DNA of 64,000 bases, from the IMG/VR virus record IMGVR_UViG_3300033146_000850, positions 1-64,000 of that record; one strand, given 5' to 3'. The notes beneath the pieces were generated by a model. It did no database searches. It saw nothing but the letters and a program-made list of their open reading frames with translations, and was not told the origin of the DNA. The position numbers and the translations under genes were made by a program. Of this stretch, positions 23,089 through 62,674 are shown piece after piece; position 1 is the stretch's first letter; every line of letters starts with the position of its first letter. This DNA is from a virus.

Positions 23089-23253
23089 ATGAAGGTGTTT
23101 ACTAAGGATATAGAATTAAAAGAGTTAAAAAATGGTGATTTTACAGTATCTATGGCTATTAATGACTCATCTTTGGTTATAAAAACTATTAAAAAGAAAG
23201 ATATTAGAAAAATATATTTCTTATTGAAATCTATATTTGATAATGAGGGTTAA
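23089..23253 (+). CDS. Small basic protein (54 aa), unknown
   Basis: ATG 23089 follows AAAGGAGAT; the product begins MKVFTKDIELKELKNGD and ends SIFDNEG. The next gene starts two bases after its stop. It is Lys-rich with one predicted beta-beta-alpha run and no cysteines. It may be a relative of the 101-residue protein at 26561, since both are short and sit right after a fibre gene, but I cannot show homology. Confidence 0.6.
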   Translation: MKVFTKDIELKELKNGDFTVSMAINDSSLVIKTIKKKDIRKIYFLLKSIFDNEG

Positions 23254-23254
23254 T

Positions 23255-24025
23255 ATGATAAAATTTAAAGATTTCTTATTAGAAACAAATAATGAAGAAT
23301 TAACCCTGAAAAGGTATCTATCATTATCTAAAGATGAACATATTAAATATTTAATTTATGATTTTGAGTATATGTTACAAGATTTTATAGACGATGTTGG
23401 TTTAGATATTGATGATTTAGATGTCAATGATTTAGATGTTGATGATTTAGATGATGATGTTAAAGATGATTTTTCAAAATGGATTTATTCAAAAATTGAG
23501 AATAACGAGGATATTCCAAATGCTGACATACCATCTTGGGTGTTTTTTGATGACAACCCAAAGATTCTAAAACCACAATGGTTGTTACATTTTTCAGATA
23601 ATGCATATTCTATTTCTAAAGATGGTTTTAAATATGGAATATCCGAGATGAGTAAATTAGGATTGACCACTCAACAATCTGAATATGATAAAAAATGGGG
23701 AGGTTATAATTTTGCATATCTCGTAGATGATTCTAATAAATATAGTAATAACCGTGACGGTTATAAATATGGAAAAGAGGCTATTTTATTCATTTCATCT
23801 GGTGTGTTGACTTATCATTATTCTGATGAAGAACCGCAAGTGATTTTTTGGGGTGAATTTGCTAGAAATATTATTTATATTGAAAAAATAAATTATGGTT
23901 ATGGGATTGCTAGTTTAAAAGATGGAAATATTATTTTTGAGGCTGACACAATAGAGGAAGTTGCTTATTGGGCTATTAATAATTTTAATCAATATAGAAA
24001 ATCTATAGTTTCAAAAGAAAAATAA
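23255..24025 (+). CDS. Conserved-looking phage protein, possible ADP-ribosyltransferase-like fold
   Basis: A 256-residue product starting at ATG 23255 (GAGGG five to six bases upstream; a TTG at 23237 overlaps the previous gene). It opens MIKFKDFLLE, a start typical of myovirus accessory proteins. There is a tandem acidic stretch at ~50-75 (DIDDLDVNDLDVDDLDDD). The core reads LLHFSDNAYSISKDGFKYG, then KLGLTT, GGYNFAYLVDD and YHYSDEEPQVIFWG. The H-[FS] start, the G-F after a helix and the later strands recall ART/Tpt1-like NAD-using folds, but I cannot identify a catalytic triad, so the enzyme call is tentative. It lies within the fibre array but does not look structural. Confidence 0.5.
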   Translation: MIKFKDFLLETNNEELTLKRYLSLSKDEHIKYLIYDFEYMLQDFIDDVGLDIDDLDVNDLDVDDLDDDVKDDFSKWIYSKIENNEDIPNADIPSWVFFDDNPKILKPQWLLHFSDNAYSISKDGFKYGISEMSKLGLTTQQSEYDKKWGGYNFAYLVDDSNKYSNNRDGYKYGKEAILFISSGVLTYHYSDEEPQVIFWGEFARNIIYIEKINYGYGIASLKDGNIIFEADTIEEVAYWAINNFNQYRKSIVSKEK

Positions 24026-46653: not shown

Positions 46654-46699
46654 TATTATGATAAATAATATAGTGGAATGATTATTATTGAGGATTATT

Positions 46700-47005
46700 A
46701 TGAAAATAGATGTAACTTATGCTTTTATATCTGGAGCATTATTTGTTTATACTGATTCTACAGCTGAAAATAGTATTGAAAAACAATTAGTTAAAAATTT
46801 TGGTGATGCAGTTCAGTTTATGATTAGAGATAAGTTAAAAGGTTTGGATACTGATGATGGCAATTTTTTAGGTATTAATTTTAATGAGGAAAAACAAAAA
46901 AATGTTGAAATTATAATAAAAAGAGTTGTTAATACAGTATCTATTGAGTTTAAATGTCCTTTTAAATTAAATATCAAATATGTGAGGGATGAATATGACA
47001 AATAA
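46700..47005 (+). CDS. Small protein of unknown function (101 aa)
   Basis: ATG 46700 follows GAGG; a TTG at 46688 overlaps it. Begins MKIDVTYAFISGALFVYTDS and has mixed helix/strand sequence without cysteine clusters, signal or membrane segment. It is the first gene of a divergent unit and overlaps the HAD-phosphatase gene by 11 bp, so the two are translationally coupled. Confidence 0.55.
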   Translation: MKIDVTYAFISGALFVYTDSTAENSIEKQLVKNFGDAVQFMIRDKLKGLDTDDGNFLGINFNEEKQKNVEIIIKRVVNTVSIEFKCPFKLNIKYVRDEYDK

Positions 47006-47630
47006 ATTTACAATCATTAGTGATATAGATGATGTTGTCCGTGATTTAAAAAATAAAATAAAGGAATCAATGAATCTTTTTTATAAAACTGATAAATGGG
47101 GTGATTATTTTTTAAAAAATGAAAAAATAACGGATTTATTCAACTGGTACAGGGTTCAACCCTTTTATCATAATCTTTTTAAAAATTGCGATATGAATGA
47201 TGATTTAATTATTAGATATATTGAAATATGTAAGAAATATGGCTGTGAATTACATTTTTTATCATCAAATGATAATGAAAAAGCTATAAACAACACTAAA
47301 AATGAGTTTTTATTGAATTATGGGATTAAATTTGACAATATGCATTTTGTTAATAACTGGTTTGAAAAATTAGACAAAGTTATTAATAATCCTGATATTT
47401 TTGGTGGTGATTTGACTAAAATTATATATATCGATGATAGGGCTGACACTTGTCAATTATTTATCGATAATGGAATCACTTCTTTTTGGTTTACAGGTTA
47501 TGGTGATGATAATAATAGAGATAATTGGATTCGATTGGATGAAAAATATGAAAATTTGAATTATGGTGGAAATGATGAATTATTATTATTTATTGAAAAT
47601 ATAATCCATCATAAATATAGTAGTATGTAG
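46995..47630 (+). CDS. HAD-superfamily hydrolase, nucleotidase-like
   Basis: A 211-residue product starting at ATG 46995 (GAGGG six bases upstream). Motif I is IISDIDDVVRD (nucleophile Asp followed by D+2). Motif II Ser/Thr is in LHFLSSND. Motif IV is IIYIDDRADTC. The central cap (WYRVQPFYHNLFKN) resembles 5'-deoxynucleotidases of the NT5C type. Possible roles are nucleotide-pool adjustment or polynucleotide 3'-phosphatase-like activity. It precedes groEL by 21 nt. Confidence 0.75.
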   Translation: MTNKFTIISDIDDVVRDLKNKIKESMNLFYKTDKWGDYFLKNEKITDLFNWYRVQPFYHNLFKNCDMNDDLIIRYIEICKKYGCELHFLSSNDNEKAINNTKNEFLLNYGIKFDNMHFVNNWFEKLDKVINNPDIFGGDLTKIIYIDDRADTCQLFIDNGITSFWFTGYGDDNNRDNWIRLDEKYENLNYGGNDELLLFIENIIHHKYSSM

Positions 47631-47651: not shown

Positions 47652-49277
47652 ATGTCAAAAACTATTTTATTAGGTGATGAGGGGAAAACAAAGATTATGA
47701 ACGGTGTTAACACGTTAGCTAATGCTGTAAAAATAACACTAGGACCGAGTGGGCGTAATGTTATCATTGGTAGAGGTTATGGTGGGGCACACGTAACAAA
47801 GGATGGGGTAACGGTAGCTACAAATATTGAATTAGAGGATACTGTAGAGAATGAAGGTGCTAAATTTATTAGAGAAGTAGCATCTAGAACTAATGATGTT
47901 GCTGGTGATGGAACAACAACAGCCACAGTTTTAGCACAGAGCATACTTAGTAATGGATATTCTCTTTCTCGTGATAAAAATTATAATTATATTGGTATTA
48001 AAAGAGGTATAGACTTCGCTATTGATACGGTTATCTCAAAAATAAATAAAATGGCTAGAAAAATCGAAACATCTAAAGAAATTGAAAATATTGGAACAAT
48101 ATCTGCAAATAATGATAGAGAAATTGGTAAAATTTTAGCAGATGCAATGGATGAGGTTGGTAGAGATGGTGTTATAACCATAGAAAGTGGAACTGGTATG
48201 GACACATCATTAGAAATAGTTGAGGGTATGCAATTTGATAGAGGATATGTGTCACCATATTTCTCAACAAATGAAGATTTGAGTTGTACATTAGAGAATC
48301 CATATATACTAATATATGATAAACCTATTAGTAATTTGAAAGATATCGTTCCAATTCTTGATATTATCATTAAAGAGAGTCGTCCATTATTAATAATATC
48401 TGATGGTGTTACTGCGGATGCATTGCAAGGTCTCATTATTAATAAAATGAATAATATTTTAAAGGTATGTGCAGTCAATGCCCCTGAATTTGGGAAAGCA
48501 AAGTATGATGCACTTCAAGATATTTCTATCTTGACTGGTGGAACATTCATATCAGATGAATTAGGTATTAAATTACCAAATGTGAATATTGATATGTTGG
48601 GAAAAGCCAAGAAAGTTGTTGTCACTGCAAATAATACTATGATTATTGATGGATTAGGCTCGGATGATGAAATCGAGAAACGAGCTAGAAATATAAAAAC
48701 ACTTATTGATAATACTAATATAGATAGTGAAAAAGAACAACACCAAAGAAGATTAGCTAAACTTATTGGTGGTGTTGCAATTGTTAAAATTGGAGCAACA
48801 ACTGAAACAGAAATGAAAGAAAAGAAGGATAGAGCAATTGATGCTCTAAACGCCACAAAATCAGCCGTAGAAGAAGGAATCGTAGCTGGGGGTGGCGTAG
48901 CATTAGTTAAGGCACAAAAGAGCTTAGAAGCGATTATTGACAACAATAAAGATTTAGATGATTCTGAATTATTGGGAGTGTCTATTGTTAAAATGGCGAT
49001 AGAGTCACCTTTCAATCAAATTTTAAGTAATTTAGGATATTCTAGTGAAAAAATATCAGATATTAAGAGATATATTGATTCGACCCATATTAATTATGGA
49101 TACGATGCAAAAAATGAAAAATTTGTTGATATGATTGAGAGCGGAATAATTGACCCAGCTAAAGTAACTAAAAATGCGTTAAAAAATGCGGGGTCTATTG
49201 CTGGTACAGTATTAACAACGGAAGTTGTAATAGTTGAAAATTTAGAACCTGGTGTAGATATGCATTTACCAAAATAA
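47652..49277 (+). CDS. groL: GroEL-type chaperonin (60 kDa)
   Basis: A 541-residue product, full length compared with bacterial GroEL (~548). Characteristic blocks are present: VKITLGPSGRNVII, KDGVTVA, NDVAGDGTTTATVLAQ (ATP site), DRGYVSPYF, and EEGIVAGGGVALVKA near the C-terminus. The C-terminal Gly-Gly-Met tail is missing; it ends PGVDMHLPK. The apical domain is diverged, which may reflect special phage substrates. TAGGAG precedes ATG 47652. No GroES or gp31-like co-chaperonin is seen in this window, so it may use the host's, or one encoded elsewhere. T4 itself encodes only gp31 and uses host GroEL. Confidence 0.95.
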   Translation: MSKTILLGDEGKTKIMNGVNTLANAVKITLGPSGRNVIIGRGYGGAHVTKDGVTVATNIELEDTVENEGAKFIREVASRTNDVAGDGTTTATVLAQSILSNGYSLSRDKNYNYIGIKRGIDFAIDTVISKINKMARKIETSKEIENIGTISANNDREIGKILADAMDEVGRDGVITIESGTGMDTSLEIVEGMQFDRGYVSPYFSTNEDLSCTLENPYILIYDKPISNLKDIVPILDIIIKESRPLLIISDGVTADALQGLIINKMNNILKVCAVNAPEFGKAKYDALQDISILTGGTFISDELGIKLPNVNIDMLGKAKKVVVTANNTMIIDGLGSDDEIEKRARNIKTLIDNTNIDSEKEQHQRRLAKLIGGVAIVKIGATTETEMKEKKDRAIDALNATKSAVEEGIVAGGGVALVKAQKSLEAIIDNNKDLDDSELLGVSIVKMAIESPFNQILSNLGYSSEKISDIKRYIDSTHINYGYDAKNEKFVDMIESGIIDPAKVTKNALKNAGSIAGTVLTTEVVIVENLEPGVDMHLPK

Positions 49278-49290
49278 AATTAAAAATTTG

Positions 49291-49331
49291 ACTTAGTCAT
49301 CAATTTGTGATATTATTATTGATGACTAAGT
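49291..49331. terminator. Bidirectional terminator hairpin (13-bp stem) overlapping a promoter-like motif
   Basis: ACTTAGTCATCAA pairs perfectly with TTGATGACTAAGT (15-nt loop) between the convergent groL and 49336 genes, with a T-rich tail on the right and an A-rich one on the left. The same bases form TTGACT-17-TATTAT (49288-49316), a fair sigma70 match on the plus strand; I favour termination as the main role. Confidence 0.75.
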
Positions 49332-49335
49332 TATT

Positions 49336-49614
49336 TTATAATGATAATTTTATTTTAACAGGTCGTTTTGAGAAACTTTTAAAATCGGGTCTAGATTTGA
49401 TATCTTTGATTGCTTCGGATGCGTTTTTGGCAAACGAATACACGGTCATACTAGCACCACCGTGTATGGTGTAAATATCCGCAATGAATGCTGGTTGTGA
49501 TTTAGTTTTTTGTTTCTTCATTAAGCCAGATATTGTTTTTTTAACTTCTCTATCTGCACGCTCTTGTTCGATTGATTTTTTAGTTTCTGTTATTAATAGG
49601 TCTTTAAAATTCAT
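49336..49614 (-). CDS. Small basic protein of unknown function (92 aa)
   Basis: Begins MNFKDLLITETKKSIEQE, an N-terminus typical of small myovirus proteins. GGAG lies six bases before the start at 49614. Lys-rich (KKTISGLMKKQKTK), ending KSFSKRPVKIKLSL. The middle part (IADIYTIHGGASMTVYSFAK) resembles small phage head or tail accessory proteins, but no family can be named. It is the only minus-strand gene between groL and the gene at 49675. Confidence 0.55.
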   Translation of the reverse strand: MNFKDLLITETKKSIEQERADREVKKTISGLMKKQKTKSQPAFIADIYTIHGGASMTVYSFAKNASEAIKDIKSRPDFKSFSKRPVKIKLSL

Positions 49615-49674
49615 AATACGCTCCATTAAATAATATTGGGGTTTATTTTATTTATTATTTTATTGAGGGATTAT

Positions 49675-49956
49675 ATGACAAATAAATATGATAAAGTTAT
49701 TAAACAAGCTACTTATTGTTTAGATAGTTTGGAGAATGGTAAACATTCTAATCAAATTATGGAAATGTCTTTTATTATAAGGGGGATATTATCCCATTTT
49801 AAACGTAAAAAAACATTGTCTGATAGACAGATAGACACTGTTTATAAATTTAATAGTATGCTAATAACAGATAGATACAATAACAAAGTTATTGAATTAT
49901 ATAATGAATATCAAAAAGAAATTCATAATTATTGGGAGAATATTCAAGAATTATAG
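49675..49956 (+). CDS. Small helical protein of unknown function (93 aa)
   Basis: ATG 49675 follows GAGGG; an upstream in-frame start at 49636 has no ribosome site. Begins MTNKYDKVIKQATYCLDSLE and is all-helical and charged. It stops 9 nt before the HSP20-like gene, which suggests it is part of the chaperone cluster's transcript. Confidence 0.55.
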   Translation: MTNKYDKVIKQATYCLDSLENGKHSNQIMEMSFIIRGILSHFKRKKTLSDRQIDTVYKFNSMLITDRYNNKVIELYNEYQKEIHNYWENIQEL

Positions 49957-49965
49957 GAGGTTGGT

Positions 49966-50376
49966 ATGAATAATAATGAGTTTTTAAATGTTTTTGATGG
50001 AATATTTAATAATAAGAATAACAAATATCAAAATGATTATGATTACCAAGATGATGAAAAACCAACAGCTTTAAAAACTAATATATATAAAGATAAAGTG
50101 TCTAATAGATATATTGTAATTGCTGAAATAAAAGATTGTAAAAAAACAGATATATGTATTTCTTATGATTCAAATGAACGCATATTATCAATTAAAGCAA
50201 AAATAGGAAAACATTTAAATTTTCCACTTACAAATATATCAACTCTTAATGAACAAATAAAATACGAAGAGCGTGAAACTACTATTCATTTTAAATATGC
50301 AAACATATTATTTGATGAAATATATCAAAACATTGAAAATTCATATTTATATTTATATATTCCAACAATAAAATAA
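49966..50376 (+). CDS. HSP20-like small heat-shock protein (alpha-crystallin-type)
   Basis: A 136-residue product with a strong AGGAGG ribosome site. After an Asn/Asp-rich N-terminus (residues 1-35), the strands follow the alpha-crystallin scheme: TNIYKDKVSNRYIVIAEI, CKKTDICISYDSNERILSIK, TIHFKYANILFDEIYQNIEN, then SYLYLYIPTIK. The end corresponds to the 'nGvL.I.iPk' strand of HSP20 proteins. A few T4-like cyanophages also carry HSP20 genes. It lies in a run with GroEL and ClpX, supporting a holdase role. The N-terminal region is short. Confidence 0.65.
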   Translation: MNNNEFLNVFDGIFNNKNNKYQNDYDYQDDEKPTALKTNIYKDKVSNRYIVIAEIKDCKKTDICISYDSNERILSIKAKIGKHLNFPLTNISTLNEQIKYEERETTIHFKYANILFDEIYQNIENSYLYLYIPTIK

Positions 50377-50390
50377 AAATCAAAATAAAC

Positions 50391-50419
50391 TTGACAAACA
50401 TATTTTTATGTGATATATT
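50391..50419 (+). promoter_or_regulatory. Sigma70-type promoter between the two HSP20-like genes
   Basis: TTGACA (50391-50396), 17-bp spacer, TATATT (50414-50419), 35 nt before ATG 50455. It drives the second HSP20-like gene and clpX. Confidence 0.75.
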
Positions 50420-50454
50420 ACATTTGACTATTTTTTACTTTTAAGGAGATTGAC

Positions 50455-51066
50455 ATGACAAAAAATGCAAACAATGAGTTTAGTTTGAATGATTTATTAA
50501 TGAGTATGTTTAACCCATCGGAATATATGTCTGATAGTATTCTAAATGGATTGGATGAAGAAGTTGATATGTTTAAAAAAACTAAAGACGGATATTCCAT
50601 AGAGGATATCCTTGTAGAATTATCCAATAAGATGGTAGAAAGAAAAAAACCAACAAAAACAAGACCTAAAAGAACAAACACAAATAAAGAGTATGATAAT
50701 CAATCCAATGATTTAAAGTTTAAAATTACTAGAGGAATTGATTCTAACAAAAAAGAAATGATATATGTTACATTAGAATTAGTTAAAGCTATTTGTAACG
50801 ATATATATGTTGAGTTTATATCTAGTATGAATATTATAGAGGTGCAATGGAGTGATTCAATTAGAGCATCCAAAAAAGATGAAGAGGTTTTATATTATAA
50901 CACAGATAAAAAAACTAATAATAAAACAATTGCGTTAGATATTCCTGATAATTATATTGTTGATAAACATAACATTACAGTAAATCAAAAACAGGATTGC
51001 GTAATACTATATTTACCAATTGAACCAAAAGTTAAAAGTGAAGAAAACTTTAGTATAAAATTATAA
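50455..51066 (+). CDS. Second HSP20-like protein (203 aa)
   Basis: AAGGAG precedes ATG 50455. The N-terminal ~85 residues are helical with a basic linker (KKPTKTRPKRTNTNK). The C-terminal ~110 residues follow the alpha-crystallin strand order: KEMIYVTLELVKAICNDIYV, then KTIALDIPDNYIVDKHNITV, then KQDCVILYLPIEPK, where 'ALDIPDNYIVDKHNI...CVILYLP' corresponds to 'LP..vd...I.A...dGvL.I.lP' of HSP20. It is directly upstream of clpX, and could present substrates to it. Similarity to HSP20 is structural in pattern rather than strong in sequence. Confidence 0.55.
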   Translation: MTKNANNEFSLNDLLMSMFNPSEYMSDSILNGLDEEVDMFKKTKDGYSIEDILVELSNKMVERKKPTKTRPKRTNTNKEYDNQSNDLKFKITRGIDSNKKEMIYVTLELVKAICNDIYVEFISSMNIIEVQWSDSIRASKKDEEVLYYNTDKKTNNKTIALDIPDNYIVDKHNITVNQKQDCVILYLPIEPKVKSEENFSIKL

Positions 51067-51078
51067 AAGAGGTTAGCT

Positions 51079-52140
51079 ATGAATCCAATAGAAATATATA
51101 ACGAATTATGTGAACACGTTGTGGAGCAGGATATTGCAAAAAAGAAATTATCAGTATCCATATATAACCATTATAAAAGAATAAATCATGTAGACCAAAC
51201 GGATGATGTCGTCATTAAAAAATCTAATATTCTATTATTAGGTAAAACAGGAACTGGGAAAACTCTATTAGCTGAAACATTAGCAAATATATTAGATATC
51301 CCTTTTACAATAGCTAATGCTGTTGAATTTTCTGAAAGCGGATATGTTGGTTCTGATGTTGATGATATAATTAGAGGGTTGATTCACAGTGCACAAGGCG
51401 ATATTGAACTTGCACAATATGGAATAGTATATATTGATGAAGTTGATAAAATAGCATCTTTAGGGTCTAATTTTTCAACTGGTGCGGATGTTGGTCACGA
51501 GGGTGTTCAACAAGCACTATTAAAAATGGTAGAGGGTACGGACATAAATGTTCAAATAGTTGGTGGACGAAAAAACCCATCAAACCAAACCTTACATTTT
51601 AATACTAATAAGGTTTTATTTATTGCTGGAGGTGCGTTTGTTGGGATAGAAGATATTATTACTAAACGGATTAATGGTAAATCTAATGGTAATATTATTG
51701 GTTTTGGTGATACTGGTGGTAATAGTTCATCTGATGAAAATAATGAAATATATAATGAAGTTATTAGTGATGATATAATAGAATATGGTTTAATTCCTGA
51801 GTTTGTAGGTAGATTTCCAGTAGTTGCACCATTACACGAGTTAAGTGATTCATCAATGTTAAAAATTTTAACAGAACCTAAAAATTCTTTAATAAAACAA
51901 TATCAAAAACTTTTTAAATTAGATAACGTCAAATTATCTTTTACAAAAAAAGGATTAGAAGCAATTGTTAAAAAAACAAAAAATGAAAATTTAGGGGCAA
52001 GAGGTCTTCGTAAAATATTAGAGGATGTTATGCTAGATATTATGTTTAATTATCCATCTAGTAATATTAAATCAATTAAGATAACAGAAAATGTTGTAAA
52101 TAATGGGTTTGATTTAAAAATATTTAAAAAATCAGCATAA
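51079..52140 (+). CDS. clpX: ClpX-type AAA+ unfoldase lacking the N-terminal zinc domain
   Basis: A 353-residue product that starts at the AAA+ boundary (compare E. coli ClpX from about residue 65), so the zinc-binding dimer domain that binds adaptors is absent. Walker A is GKTGTGKT (55-62), Walker B IVYIDEVDK (116-124), pore-1 loop GYVG (88-91), arginine finger in EFVGRFP (R245), and sensor 2 GARGLR (306-311). The ClpP-docking IGF tripeptide is kept (207-209, in NIIGFGD). The RKH pore-entrance loop reads RKN (164-166). These point to a working unfoldase able to dock on ClpP, presumably the host's, but with altered substrate selection. AGAGGT precedes ATG 51079. Confidence 0.93.
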   Translation: MNPIEIYNELCEHVVEQDIAKKKLSVSIYNHYKRINHVDQTDDVVIKKSNILLLGKTGTGKTLLAETLANILDIPFTIANAVEFSESGYVGSDVDDIIRGLIHSAQGDIELAQYGIVYIDEVDKIASLGSNFSTGADVGHEGVQQALLKMVEGTDINVQIVGGRKNPSNQTLHFNTNKVLFIAGGAFVGIEDIITKRINGKSNGNIIGFGDTGGNSSSDENNEIYNEVISDDIIEYGLIPEFVGRFPVVAPLHELSDSSMLKILTEPKNSLIKQYQKLFKLDNVKLSFTKKGLEAIVKKTKNENLGARGLRKILEDVMLDIMFNYPSSNIKSIKITENVVNNGFDLKIFKKSA

Positions 52141-52197: not shown

Positions 52198-52767
52198 ATG
52201 GTAACTAAAAAAATAGATGAACAAACATTATTTAACGGTGTTGTTTTTGATGTTGTAAAAAAGAAATATGATGATGATGGTGAGATTTTTACTAGAGAAA
52301 TTGTAAAAACACCGGATGTTGTTCACATATTACCATTCGATAAAAATGGTAATATTTATGCAATTAGGGAGTTTAGAGGTGCAATAGATGATATGATTAT
52401 AGGTTTCCCAGCTGGTAAAATTGAGAATGGTGAATTACCTGAACTATCTGCATCAAGAGAAGTCGAGGAAGAAATTGGAATGCGTGTTGTTGATTTATAT
52501 AGTGTAAGTCCATCAATTATAACATCATCTGGGGTAATTACAGAAAAAGGGTATTATTATTTTGCATTAGTTGAGGATATAAAAGATGAAGATAGGGAAC
52601 ATTTTCCTGATGTTGATGAGAAAATAGAGGTATTAAAAATGTCAGATTATGAATTTGGAGAGTTAATACACGAAAAAATTAAAAATCAGGAATCTATTGA
52701 GTTAAAAACTATGTTTTTATGGACGGTATATATTGTAAAACAACAAAATAATAATCTTACTAAATAA
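52198..52767 (+). CDS. Nudix hydrolase, ADP-ribose pyrophosphatase-like
   Basis: A 189-residue product; AGGAG precedes ATG 52198. A complete Nudix box spans G73-M95 (G-x5-E79-x7-R87-E-V-E-E-E-I-G-M), with the preceding FPAGKIENGE typical of ADP-ribose/NAD-type Nudix enzymes (NudF). T4 carries NudE-type enzymes, and other phages use Nudix hydrolases for ADP-ribose, ppGpp or capped RNA. Substrate cannot be decided from the sequence. It is followed after 12 nt by a cyclotransferase-like gene. Confidence 0.88.
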   Translation: MVTKKIDEQTLFNGVVFDVVKKKYDDDGEIFTREIVKTPDVVHILPFDKNGNIYAIREFRGAIDDMIIGFPAGKIENGELPELSASREVEEEIGMRVVDLYSVSPSIITSSGVITEKGYYYFALVEDIKDEDREHFPDVDEKIEVLKMSDYEFGELIHEKIKNQESIELKTMFLWTVYIVKQQNNNLTK

Positions 52768-52779
52768 GGAGGTATTAAG

Positions 52780-53286
52780 TTGAAGAAACATACTATATTT
52801 ATATATGGGAATTGTTTGAGAGGGATGGATAATAATGTTATGTTAGGTGAAACATCTAAATATCTTGGTAATGACATTATAATAGGATGGGGATTAATTG
52901 ATATTCAGAATTATCCTTTAGCCATAGAGGCTAGATTTCCTAGACATAAAACGCATATTAGGGTTGAAACATATGAGATTGATTCAAAAGTGTTAAAAAA
53001 ATTAGAAAAATATTTCAATTTTCCTAAAATGTATGATAAAAAAATTGTTGTTAGTAAGAAGAATATTAAAGGGTTGATTTTTTATGGGAATGATAGGAAA
53101 TCAACATTACAAGGTACAGGGATACCAGTTCCTGATGGTGATTGGAGAACGTACTCGAAAGTTAAAAATAATAGGCTTGAATTGAAGGAAAAAAGAAAGA
53201 AAAGAAGACAGGATACAGATGAAAATGAGCAACAAGCTCAAAATAATAATAATATAATTAATGGAGAAAAAAATGAAAAACGGTAA
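52780..53286 (+). CDS. Gamma-glutamylcyclotransferase-like protein
   Basis: TTG start at 52780, with GGAGG seven bases upstream. The 168-residue product opens with FIYGNCLRGMDNN, corresponding to the 'YGtLr.G..N' substrate loop of the GGCT/AIG2-like fold. RVETYEIDSKVLKKLEKYF then matches 'veVYeVd...l..LD..Eg', but the usual catalytic Glu is not evident. The last ~40 residues are a basic/Gln-Asn tail (KEKRKKRRQDTDENEQQ). Its 3' end overlaps the next gene by 14 nt. Similar proteins occur in many T4-like phages with unknown roles. Confidence 0.6.
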   Translation: MKKHTIFIYGNCLRGMDNNVMLGETSKYLGNDIIIGWGLIDIQNYPLAIEARFPRHKTHIRVETYEIDSKVLKKLEKYFNFPKMYDKKIVVSKKNIKGLIFYGNDRKSTLQGTGIPVPDGDWRTYSKVKNNRLELKEKRKKRRQDTDENEQQAQNNNNIINGEKNEKR

Positions 53287-53671
53287 AATTTACATTGGAA
53301 CTACTTTGAATGCTAATTACATTGGAGTTTATAACTCTAAAAATAAAAGTTTAGATGAAGTATGGAGTATTAATACTAAGGGGCATCAAATTCAAATCGC
53401 ACCAGGTAACCATCCAGTATTTCTACAAAAAAAATTCGAGGATACTCTAATTGATATTTCTATTAAAGTTGATAGTTTTTTATACACAACCGACCCTGAT
53501 AAACTAAAATTAGGTGATGAATTTATTAAAATATATAAAGAAGCTAAGACTGGATTATTACTAACTAATCCAGACGAATCACTTGAAAATAAAGAATTAG
53601 CCGACAAACTTAGGAAGAAAATAGAAAAAGCTGAAAATAATTCAAAATCAAAATTAATAATTCAAAACTAG
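53273..53671 (+). CDS. Unknown protein (132 aa)
   Basis: ATG 53273 follows GGAG seven bases upstream, both inside the end of the previous gene, so translation is coupled. Begins MKNGKIYIGTTLNANYIGVY, has a mixed beta N-terminal half and a helical, Lys/Glu-rich C-terminus (ELADKLRKKIEKAENNSKSK). No family recognised. It precedes the clamp-loader gene by 18 nt. Confidence 0.55.
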   Translation: MKNGKIYIGTTLNANYIGVYNSKNKSLDEVWSINTKGHQIQIAPGNHPVFLQKKFEDTLIDISIKVDSFLYTTDPDKLKLGDEFIKIYKEAKTGLLLTNPDESLENKELADKLRKKIEKAENNSKSKLIIQN

Positions 53672-53689
53672 AAAAACGGAGTTTAAAAA

Positions 53690-54634
53690 ATGTCAGAATT
53701 TAATTTTAATCACGAATTTAAAGGTGTATGGGCTGAAAAATATAGACCTGATAGTATATCTGAAACTATTTTACCAAATAGATTAAAGAGACAATTTCAG
53801 AAATATATTGATGATGGCTCAATTCCAAATTTGTTATTAATATCACCATCCCCAGGGACTGGAAAAACAACTATTGCAAAAATAATTATAAAAGAATTAA
53901 ATGCTTGCGAATTAGGTTTAAATGGTTCTCAAGATAATGGTATCGATATTGTTAGAGGTCCTATAACTAGATTTGTACGAAATGATTCTATGACAGGTAG
54001 TAAAATTGTTTTTATAGATGAAGCCGATGGATTAACACTCAAGGCTCAACAATCATTAAAATCATTTATTGAGGATAATATTGAGAGAGTTAGATTTATA
54101 ATGACTGCAAATGATGAGTATGAATTTATCGATGCGATAATGTCTAGATTTCAAAAAATACACTTCAATATTGATAATGATGAATATCAAGAAATGGTTA
54201 ATTTATTTACGAACCGAGTTTTAAATATATTAAAAAAAGAAAGTATTAAACACGACCCCAAAGCAGTATTTCAAACTGTGAAAAATTCATTTCCTGATTA
54301 TAGAGAAGTTTGGCAAAACCTTGAATCGACATATAATTCATATGGAGAAATAACCAAAGGTAATACTGTATCTAAAAAGGCAATTTTAAAAATGATAGAA
54401 GCTATAAACACCAAAGATTTGTCAAAAATTAGAAGTGCTATGACCACAACCAAGAATATCAACTATAATAATATATATAGTAAATTATTAGAGCACGTTG
54501 ATTCATTTGACGGATATAGTATGGATAATATTCTATTTACAATTGCTGATTGGAATTATAAAAATAAATTTGTTGCTGATAAATTTTTAAATTTTTTAGG
54601 AATGTGTGCTGATATGATACAGCATTCTGATTGA
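53690..54634 (+). CDS. 44: Sliding-clamp loader large subunit (T4 gp44-like)
   Basis: A 314-residue AAA+ protein of the RFC small-subunit type, matching gp44 in length (319). It opens with the family hallmark VWAEKYRPDSISETILP. Walker A is SPGTGKT (54-60), Walker B IVFIDEADGL, and an SRF motif (IMSRFQ) replaces the common SRC. Four copies with one gp62 load the gp45 clamp onto DNA. The next genes are gp62-like and regA, the T4 order 44-62-regA. The clamp itself (gene 45) and the polymerase (43) are not in this window. Confidence 0.9.
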   Translation: MSEFNFNHEFKGVWAEKYRPDSISETILPNRLKRQFQKYIDDGSIPNLLLISPSPGTGKTTIAKIIIKELNACELGLNGSQDNGIDIVRGPITRFVRNDSMTGSKIVFIDEADGLTLKAQQSLKSFIEDNIERVRFIMTANDEYEFIDAIMSRFQKIHFNIDNDEYQEMVNLFTNRVLNILKKESIKHDPKAVFQTVKNSFPDYREVWQNLESTYNSYGEITKGNTVSKKAILKMIEAINTKDLSKIRSAMTTTKNINYNNIYSKLLEHVDSFDGYSMDNILFTIADWNYKNKFVADKFLNFLGMCADMIQHSD

Positions 54635-60854: not shown

Positions 60855-60883
60855 ATAATATCATAATTAAACATATATGTCAA
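60855..60883 (-). promoter_or_regulatory. Sigma70-type promoter (minus strand)
   Basis: TTGACA (60883-60878), 17-bp spacer, TATTAT (60860-60855) on the minus strand, 34 nt before the leader ORF. It would drive the leader, GHKL ATPase, RNase H and the 63-residue gene. Confidence 0.8.
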
Positions 60884-62610: not shown

Positions 62611-62665
62611 ATAATAATTATATCATAATAATTATAACATAGTAATTATATCACAATATAATATC
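62611..62665. repeat. 14-bp tandem repeats over the helicase promoter (candidate operator)
   Basis: ATAATAATTATATC, ATAATAATTATAAC and ATAGTAATTATATC are consecutive 14-bp units (62611-62652), with a weaker fourth unit ACAATATAATATC (62653-62665). The third unit contains the -10 box of the minus-strand promoter and the first two cover the start-site region, so binding here would affect helicase transcription. Confidence 0.7.
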
Positions 62666-62674
62666 AAAGTCAAA
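62646..62674 (-). promoter_or_regulatory. Sigma70-type promoter (minus strand) for the helicase
   Basis: TTGACT (62674-62669), 17-bp spacer, TATAAT (62651-62646) on the minus strand. The -10 box lies within the third 14-bp repeat unit. Its transcript would start about 50 nt before the helicase ATG. Confidence 0.8.

What the first reader, a model, noticed from the sequence alone, without database searches (positions are those of the whole stretch)
47652..52140. Phage chaperone/unfoldase set: GroEL, two HSP20-like proteins and ClpX
A full GroEL, two alpha-crystallin-like proteins and a ClpX lie within 4.5 kb, interrupted only by two small genes. T4 itself carries none of these. Together they form a potential holdase-foldase-unfoldase set made by the phage. 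With 34 kb of large fibre and adhesin genes nearby, they may ensure folding of these proteins, or control host proteins.
Basis: partly seen in the sequence, partly recalled or inferred. Interest (0 to 1): 0.7.

Follow-up and report, generated by a model that had tools for sequence, protein, structure and literature searches.

The report
Phage chaperonin and ClpX gene cluster
A T4-like virus of bacteria carries its own protein-folding chamber (GroEL, with a GroES lid 47 kb away) and its own protein-unfolding motor (ClpX) in one gene cluster that its nearest known relatives lack, but these are probably two separately expressed tools rather than one machine, and the two claimed small heat-shock proteins between them are only partly supported.

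Summary
GroEL (47652-49277) and ClpX (51079-52140) are real, intact genes. The two "HSP20-like" genes match no HSP20 profile. One (50455-51066) gives a low-confidence model whose nearest solved structures are almost all small heat-shock proteins. The other (49966-50376) gives no fold.

They do not form one four-gene unit. A minus-strand gene separates GroEL from the rest. The 203-aa gene plus ClpX have their own promoter-like site, of a class that recurs through this phage. GroEL's partner GroES lies 47 kb away, beside gp47-like and late-sigma genes. No ClpP is in the 126-kb record. ClpX lacks the zinc-binding N-domain (ZBD) but keeps the IGF docking loop, so hijack of host ClpP is likely.

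In other phages GroEL and ClpX usually occur apart: of 16 GroEL-selected records one had ClpX; of 28 ClpX/HSP20-selected records none had a full GroEL. One other IMG/VR lineage clusters them, as ClpX-bS21-GroES-GroEL-HSP20-ClpS. The nearest large relative (134 kb, 48 shared genes) lacks GroEL, GroES and ClpX, so this looks like an accessory island.

Each part is known in phages. The arrangement, and a ZBD-less ClpX paired with an orphan alpha-crystallin-like protein, is a new variant.

The parts
47652..49277 (+). GroEL chaperonin (541 aa); keeps GDGTTT (from residue 85) and the EEGIVAGGG region; lacks the GGM-type C-terminal tail
49336..49626 (-). 96-aa orphan on the opposite strand; N-terminus ..MNFKDLLITE.. 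resembles a motif repeated in this phage
49288..49316 (+). promoter-like site TTGACT-N17-(TGn)-TATTAT just after the GroEL stop; same class as recurrent intergenic sites
49636..49956 (+). 106-aa orphan (an ATG start would give about 93 aa)
49966..50376 (+).
50391..50419 (+). strong promoter-like site TTGACA-N17-(TGn)-TATATT, 36 bp upstream of the 203-aa gene
50455..51066 (+). 203-aa orphan: predicted helical N-terminus plus a beta-sandwich (residues about 85-198) like the alpha-crystallin/CS fold; ends in ..SIKL
51079..52140 (+). ClpX AAA+ unfoldase (353 aa) without N-terminal zinc-binding domain; Walker A/B, GYVG pore loop, GGRKN loop, IGFG ClpP-docking loop and sensor-2 region conserved
46688..47630 (+). 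105-aa ORF and HAD-like ORF that precede GroEL in the same direction (overlapping ends; probable transcription unit with GroEL)
52198..54634 (+). NUDIX, GGACT, 136-aa ORF and clamp-loader (T4 gp44-like) genes downstream of ClpX; the block from GGACT on is conserved in a relative

Best explanation
This is an accessory proteostasis island of a T4-like phage made of two tools that work separately. GroEL, with the phage's own GroES encoded 47 kb away next to gp47-like and late-sigma genes, makes a chaperonin that probably folds late virion proteins, as the T4 gp31-host GroEL pair does for the capsid protein. ClpX, made with the 203-aa alpha-crystallin-like protein from a separate host-type promoter, probably docks on host ClpP by its conserved IGF loop. 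Because it lacks the zinc-binding domain it would ignore host adaptors that bind there, and the 203-aa protein may hold or deliver its substrates. Shown: gene identities, conserved motifs, missing domain, layout, promoter-like class, absence from relatives. Inferred: timing, partners, substrates and any adaptor role.
For: GroEL and ClpX pass curated cut-offs with catalytic motifs in place. GroES sits in the same record beside gp47-like and gp55-like genes. No ClpP profile hit in the record, and IIGFG aligns with the E. coli IGFG loop. The TIGR00382 match starts at position 58 of 414, so the N-domain is absent. The TTGA-N16-TG-N-TANNNT class occurs 20 times against 4.4 expected; 12 of the 20 are intergenic although only about 5% of the record is, and one lies 36 bp before the 203-aa gene. 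Relatives with the same downstream genes lack the cluster. In other phages GroEL lies between sheath and tube genes, and ClpX lies near the major capsid gene.
Against: No expression or interaction data. One other phage lineage does keep ClpX, GroES, GroEL, HSP20 and ClpS together, which argues that foldase and unfoldase can belong together. The record is a 126-kb fragment of unknown completeness, so ClpP may be encoded elsewhere. The alpha-crystallin call for the 203-aa protein rests on a low-confidence model, and VIA-align Z below 8 can mean only a common arrangement. T4-type late sites (TATAAATA) are no more frequent than chance in the window, so GroEL timing is unknown.
Confidence: 0.5

Rival explanations
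1. One coordinated holdase-foldase-unfoldase set: both orphan proteins are divergent small heat-shock proteins that capture aggregating phage proteins and pass them to GroEL or ClpX.
For: Physical clustering within 4.5 kb; the related layout ClpX-bS21-GroES-GroEL-HSP20-ClpS in other phages; fold resemblance of the 203-aa protein.
Against: Opposite-strand gene and separate promoter-like site inside the cluster; no fold or sequence support for the 136-aa protein; GroEL and ClpX mostly in different phages; GroES is outside the cluster.
Confidence: 0.2
2. Independent accessory genes that happened to land in the same variable site between the fibre block and the clamp-loader operon; no functional link at all.
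For: Synteny breaks here: fibre-block and clamp-loader genes lie apart in the 134-kb relative, which lacks GroEL, GroES and ClpX; PhoH, NUDIX and other common accessory genes share the site.
Against: The 203-aa gene and ClpX are 12 bp apart behind one promoter-like site; similar gene mixes recur in unrelated phages.
Confidence: 0.25
3. ClpX works without ClpP, as an unfoldase or assembly remodeler of phage complexes (replication or virion).
For: No phage ClpP in the record; ClpX lies directly upstream of the NUDIX to clamp-loader genes; a review suggests translocase or assembly roles for phage ClpX (PMC7824862).
Against: The ClpP-docking IGF loop is intact; of 98 ClpX sequences aligned, 92 keep it.
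Confidence: 0.2

Closest known systems
Phage-encoded GroEL/GroES (e.g. Flavobacterium phage immuto, Vibrio phages Va1 and 144E46.1, Bacteroides phage DAC16)
   Same: Full-length GroEL with a GroES in the same phage; in several of them GroEL and GroES are far apart, as here.
   Different: Identity below 50% to any phage record; very long branch, no GGM tail; ClpX nearby.
ClpX-bS21-(GroES-GroEL)-HSP20-ClpS cassette of large phages (IMG/VR contigs; without GroEL also Pseudomonas phage PA5oct)
   Same: Phage ClpX, GroEL and a heat-shock protein clustered.
   Different: Window has no bS21, ClpS or recognisable HSP20, opposite gene order, ZBD-less ClpX and GroES elsewhere.
Bacillus phage G ClpP-ClpX pair (gp257-gp258)
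   Same: Phage ClpX, 46.8% identical.
   Different: Phage G pairs it with its own ClpP and keeps the zinc-binding domain.
Cyanophage small heat-shock proteins (S-ShM2 Hsp20, PDB 7ck4)
   Same: Phage-borne alpha-crystallin domain; the 203-aa model aligns with 7ck4 at Z 6.4, rmsd 3.5 over 72 residues.
   Different: No sequence similarity detected to any HSP20 profile.
T4 gp31 co-chaperonin
   Same: Phage GroES-type protein that serves late capsid folding (own knowledge); here GroES lies beside gp47- and gp55-like genes.
   Different: T4 uses host GroEL; this phage has its own.

Membership tests
GroEL (TIGR02348) | Score over the equivalog cut-off, full length, ATPase motifs | tested here: met
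   658.7 vs 582.1 bits, residues 2-530; alignment with GDGTTT and EEGIVAGGG
GroEL (TIGR02348) | GroES partner available | tested here: met
   Cpn10 60.2 bits at record 96803-97075; PHROG co-chaperonin GroES 8.4e-18
GroEL (TIGR02348) | GGM-rich C-terminal tail (common, not essential) | tested here: not met
   Tail ..LEPGVDMHLPK; a simple test finds a GGM-type tail in 53 of 76 viral and 72 of 80 bacterial GroELs
ClpX (TIGR00382) | AAA+ module over the equivalog cut-off with Walker, pore and sensor-2 motifs | tested here: met
   419.4 vs 370.75 bits; alignment to E. coli ClpX
ClpX (TIGR00382) | N-terminal zinc-binding domain | tested here: not met
   Match starts at profile position 58 of 414; no CxxC pair. 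Filed as a ClpX without N-domain
ClpX (TIGR00382) | IGF loop for ClpP docking | tested here: met
   IIGFG aligned to IGFG
HSP20 (PF00011), 203-aa protein | Sequence profile match | tested here: not met
   No hit at E<=10; hhalign none
HSP20 (PF00011), 203-aa protein | Alpha-crystallin beta-sandwich fold | tested here: inconclusive
   Foldseek top rows nearly all small heat-shock proteins, E 3.5e-3, prob 1.00, but model pLDDT 48.6 and VIA Z 6-7
HSP20 (PF00011), 136-aa protein | Sequence profile match | tested here: not met
HSP20 (PF00011), 136-aa protein | Alpha-crystallin fold | tested here: inconclusive
   Model pLDDT 33.6, no useful match
ClpX-bS21-GroES-GroEL-HSP20-ClpS phage cassette | bS21, ClpS and HSP20 neighbours in that order | tested here: not met
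   No bS21, ClpS or HSP20 HMM hit of note among record ORFs; order differs
All of the above | Biochemical activity | not testable with these tools
   needs purified proteins

The most novel reading that the evidence does not exclude
The 203-aa protein is a new kind of adaptor: an alpha-crystallin-fold protein, co-expressed with a ClpX that has lost its own adaptor-binding domain, that captures chosen host or phage proteins and feeds them to the phage ClpX on host ClpP, reprogramming host proteolysis early in infection.
Probability: 0.15. Interest if true: 0.7.

Novelty: new variant of a known kind. Interest (0 to 1): 0.4.

Why it matters
Phages are usually thought to borrow host chaperones and proteases. 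This record adds a phage with its own chaperonin pair and its own stripped-down ClpX, and suggests that such genes come and go as accessory islands. It gives a simple testable pair (203-aa protein plus ZBD-less ClpX) for how a phage could redirect host ClpP, and a comparison case for the more widespread ClpX-bS21-HSP20-ClpS cassette.

Tried and rejected
Sequence relatives of the 136- and 203-aa proteins: none in phage records or IMG/VR, none in PDB. HSP20 by PF00011, NCBIfam, PHROGs, a phage HSP20 HMM and hhalign: none. Similarity between the two proteins: none. Structure search with the 136-aa model: no useful match. T4 late promoter motif: at chance level, dropped. The general sigma-70 scan was at chance (68 against 67.8); only the extended -10 subset is enriched. 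ClpP, ClpS, bS21 and IF3 in the record: none. A recent host origin of GroEL was rejected: the window GroEL sits on a long branch (0.97, median tip 0.097), nearest to a viral sequence with modest support. Search for relatives of the clamp loader to reach the syntenic locus found none; the major head protein did. The Paride paper does not mention Clp or chaperones.
Full report
What is there. The record that holds the window is a 126,063-base IMG/VR virus fragment. It has T4-type head genes: a major head protein (PHROG 138, 4.6e-108) and a portal (PHROG 213, 8.6e-146). GroEL at 47652-49277 and ClpX at 51079-52140 are intact and pass the curated cut-offs of their families. The ClpX aligns with E. 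coli ClpX over residues 3-342, including Walker A and B, the GYVG pore loop, the GGRK loop (here GGRKN), the IGFG loop and the GARGLR region. It lacks the zinc-binding N-domain: the profile match starts at position 58 of 414. Of 98 ClpX sequences aligned here, 88 show the zinc-finger pattern by a simple text rule and 92 keep an IGF-type loop; the rule is rough, and some sequences it counts as negative are truncated or have unusual spacing.

The two claimed HSP20 proteins. Neither the 136-aa protein (49966-50376) nor the 203-aa protein (50455-51066) has any relative in the phage collection or IMG/VR, any hit in PDB sequences, or an HSP20 hit in Pfam, NCBIfam or PHROGs. A whole-record search with PF00011 at E<=10 found nothing, while the control genomes rang. 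An HMM from 80 phage HSP20s and hhalign comparisons gave nothing above background. Single-sequence AlphaFold models are weak. For the 203-aa protein (pLDDT 48.6) the Foldseek list is nonetheless almost purely small heat-shock proteins in its first 34 rows, best E 3.5e-3 and probability 1.00. VIA-align gives Z 6-7 to small heat-shock and CS domains over residues 84-198, mixed with unrelated beta-sandwich proteins. I take the alpha-crystallin/CS fold as likely for this one, not proven. For the 136-aa protein the model (pLDDT 33.6) is of no use. By eye its last residues (FKYANILFDEIYQNIENSYLYLYIP) resemble the C-terminal pattern of the domain, but that is an impression, not a test.

Layout and transcription. 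GroEL follows a 105-aa ORF and a HAD-like ORF with overlapping ends. After GroEL comes a 96-aa gene on the opposite strand, then the 106-aa, 136-aa and 203-aa genes and ClpX, followed by NUDIX, GGACT, a 136-aa ORF and the clamp loader. A general promoter scan was at chance. The subset with an extended -10 (TTGA-N16-TG-N-TANNNT) occurs 20 times in the record against 4.4 in simulated sequence (largest of 20 simulations: 10); 12 of the 20 are intergenic although only about 5% of the record is intergenic. Two of these sites fall in the cluster: one directly after the GroEL stop (49288-49316) and a near-perfect one 36 bp before the 203-aa gene (50391-50419). Other genes with such a site include a DNA ligase and a helicase. 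The 203-aa gene and ClpX therefore probably form a unit with its own host-type promoter, separate from GroEL. That it is early is an inference from T4 practice.

Missing and remote partners. GroES is encoded at record 96719-97087 on the minus strand, directly after a gp47-like nuclease gene and a gp55-like late sigma gene. No ClpP, ClpS, bS21 or IF3 was found in the record. The record may be incomplete.

Comparison with other phages. GroEL is found in 253 phage records, all below 60% identity, and ClpX in 88; some short, unannotated records in those lists may be host contamination. In 44 other large records the picture was clear. All 16 chosen for GroEL have it, 15 of these also have GroES, 4 have HSP20 and only one has ClpX over the cut-off. 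Of 28 chosen for ClpX or HSP20, none has a full GroEL; two have weak, split Cpn60-like matches. So the genes usually travel apart. In one lineage they do cluster: 13 of 80 GroEL loci carry ClpX upstream, usually with bS21 and GroES between and HSP20 and ClpS after. Of 80 loci chosen for that HSP20, 79 have ClpX and 79 have ClpS close by; these loci are related to each other, so this is not 80 independent events. Pfam confirms HSP20, ClpS, bS21 and IF3 in examples. Pseudomonas phage PA5oct carries ClpX, bS21, Hsp20 and ClpS in close succession. The literature already counts Hsp20 (127) and Clp proteases (50 and 47) among neighbours of phage bS21 (PMC9723584). It lists ClpX, ClpS, HSP20 and HSP60 in jumbo phages, noting that HSP60 and HSP10 fall in different phages (PMC7824862), and it describes seven Clp-like proteins in Atu_ph07 (PMC6102473).

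Nearest relatives. The major head protein finds three fragments at 69-77% identity and a 134,396-base record at 56%. The 134-kb record shares 48 of 116 ORFs with this phage and keeps the 136-aa ORF-clamp-loader block, but has no GroEL, GroES or ClpX by tblastn or HMM. A 45.7-kb fragment (69%) keeps GGACT-ORF-clamp loader, with unrelated small ORFs where NUDIX and ClpX would be. The fibre block and the clamp-loader block, which flank the cluster here, lie apart in the 134-kb relative. The cluster therefore sits at a synteny break, as an accessory island would. The relatives are also possibly incomplete, so absence is shown for the syntenic place and for the bases held, not for the whole virus.

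How it most likely works. GroEL with the phage GroES probably folds virion proteins; in another phage GroEL lies between sheath and tube genes. ClpX probably uses host ClpP, given the intact docking loop and no phage ClpP found, and without the zinc-binding domain it should escape host adaptors that bind there (own knowledge of SspB and similar). The 203-aa protein may hold or deliver its substrates. A pure coincidence of accessory genes remains a serious rival.

Verdict. The identity of GroEL and ClpX is settled. The HSP20 claim has fold-level support for one gene and none for the other. The set is partly supported. Each part is known; the combination is a new variant.

Noticed in passing
L024:5836-10526, L036:6290-10558, L029:5734-10096 and relatives: A phage cassette ClpX-(bS21)-(GroES-GroEL)-HSP20-ClpS, sometimes with ClpP nearby; 79 of 80 loci chosen for this HSP20 have ClpX and 79 have ClpS.
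   Followed up: partly
L006:7800-10953; L197:2827-4649; L203:2824-4670: Phage translation initiation factor IF-3 directly after ClpX, in an IMG/VR contig (then bS21, HSP20, ClpS) and in phages Atu_ph07 and Phosso.
   Followed up: partly
H108 (OR805295, phage Paride) and L198 (PA5oct): Phage Paride, reported to kill dormant P. aeruginosa, matches the window ClpX at the same identity and coverage as PA5oct, which carries ClpX-bS21-Hsp20-ClpS; the Paride paper does not mention Clp or chaperones.
   Followed up: no
23237-24025, 49336-49626 (window); record 93134-93790, 103520-104431, 105286-105645, 115958-116380: Six proteins share an N-terminal motif like MxFKDFLxE, against about one expected; it recalls capsid-targeting sequences of T4 internal proteins.
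   Followed up: partly
97-1286 (window) and record 99121-99793: Low-complexity open frames with nearly the same translated sequence near the start of the window and again at about 99 kb of the record; possible repeated non-coding element.
   Followed up: no
record-wide, e.g. 50391-50419, 60855-60883, 62645-62673 (window): Recurrent extended -10 promoter-like class (TTGA-N16-TG-N-TANNNT), 20 sites against 4.4 expected, 12 of them intergenic.
   Followed up: yes
L008:5142-9065: ClpX two genes downstream of a T4-type major head protein in IMG/VR contigs L008 and L011.
   Followed up: no
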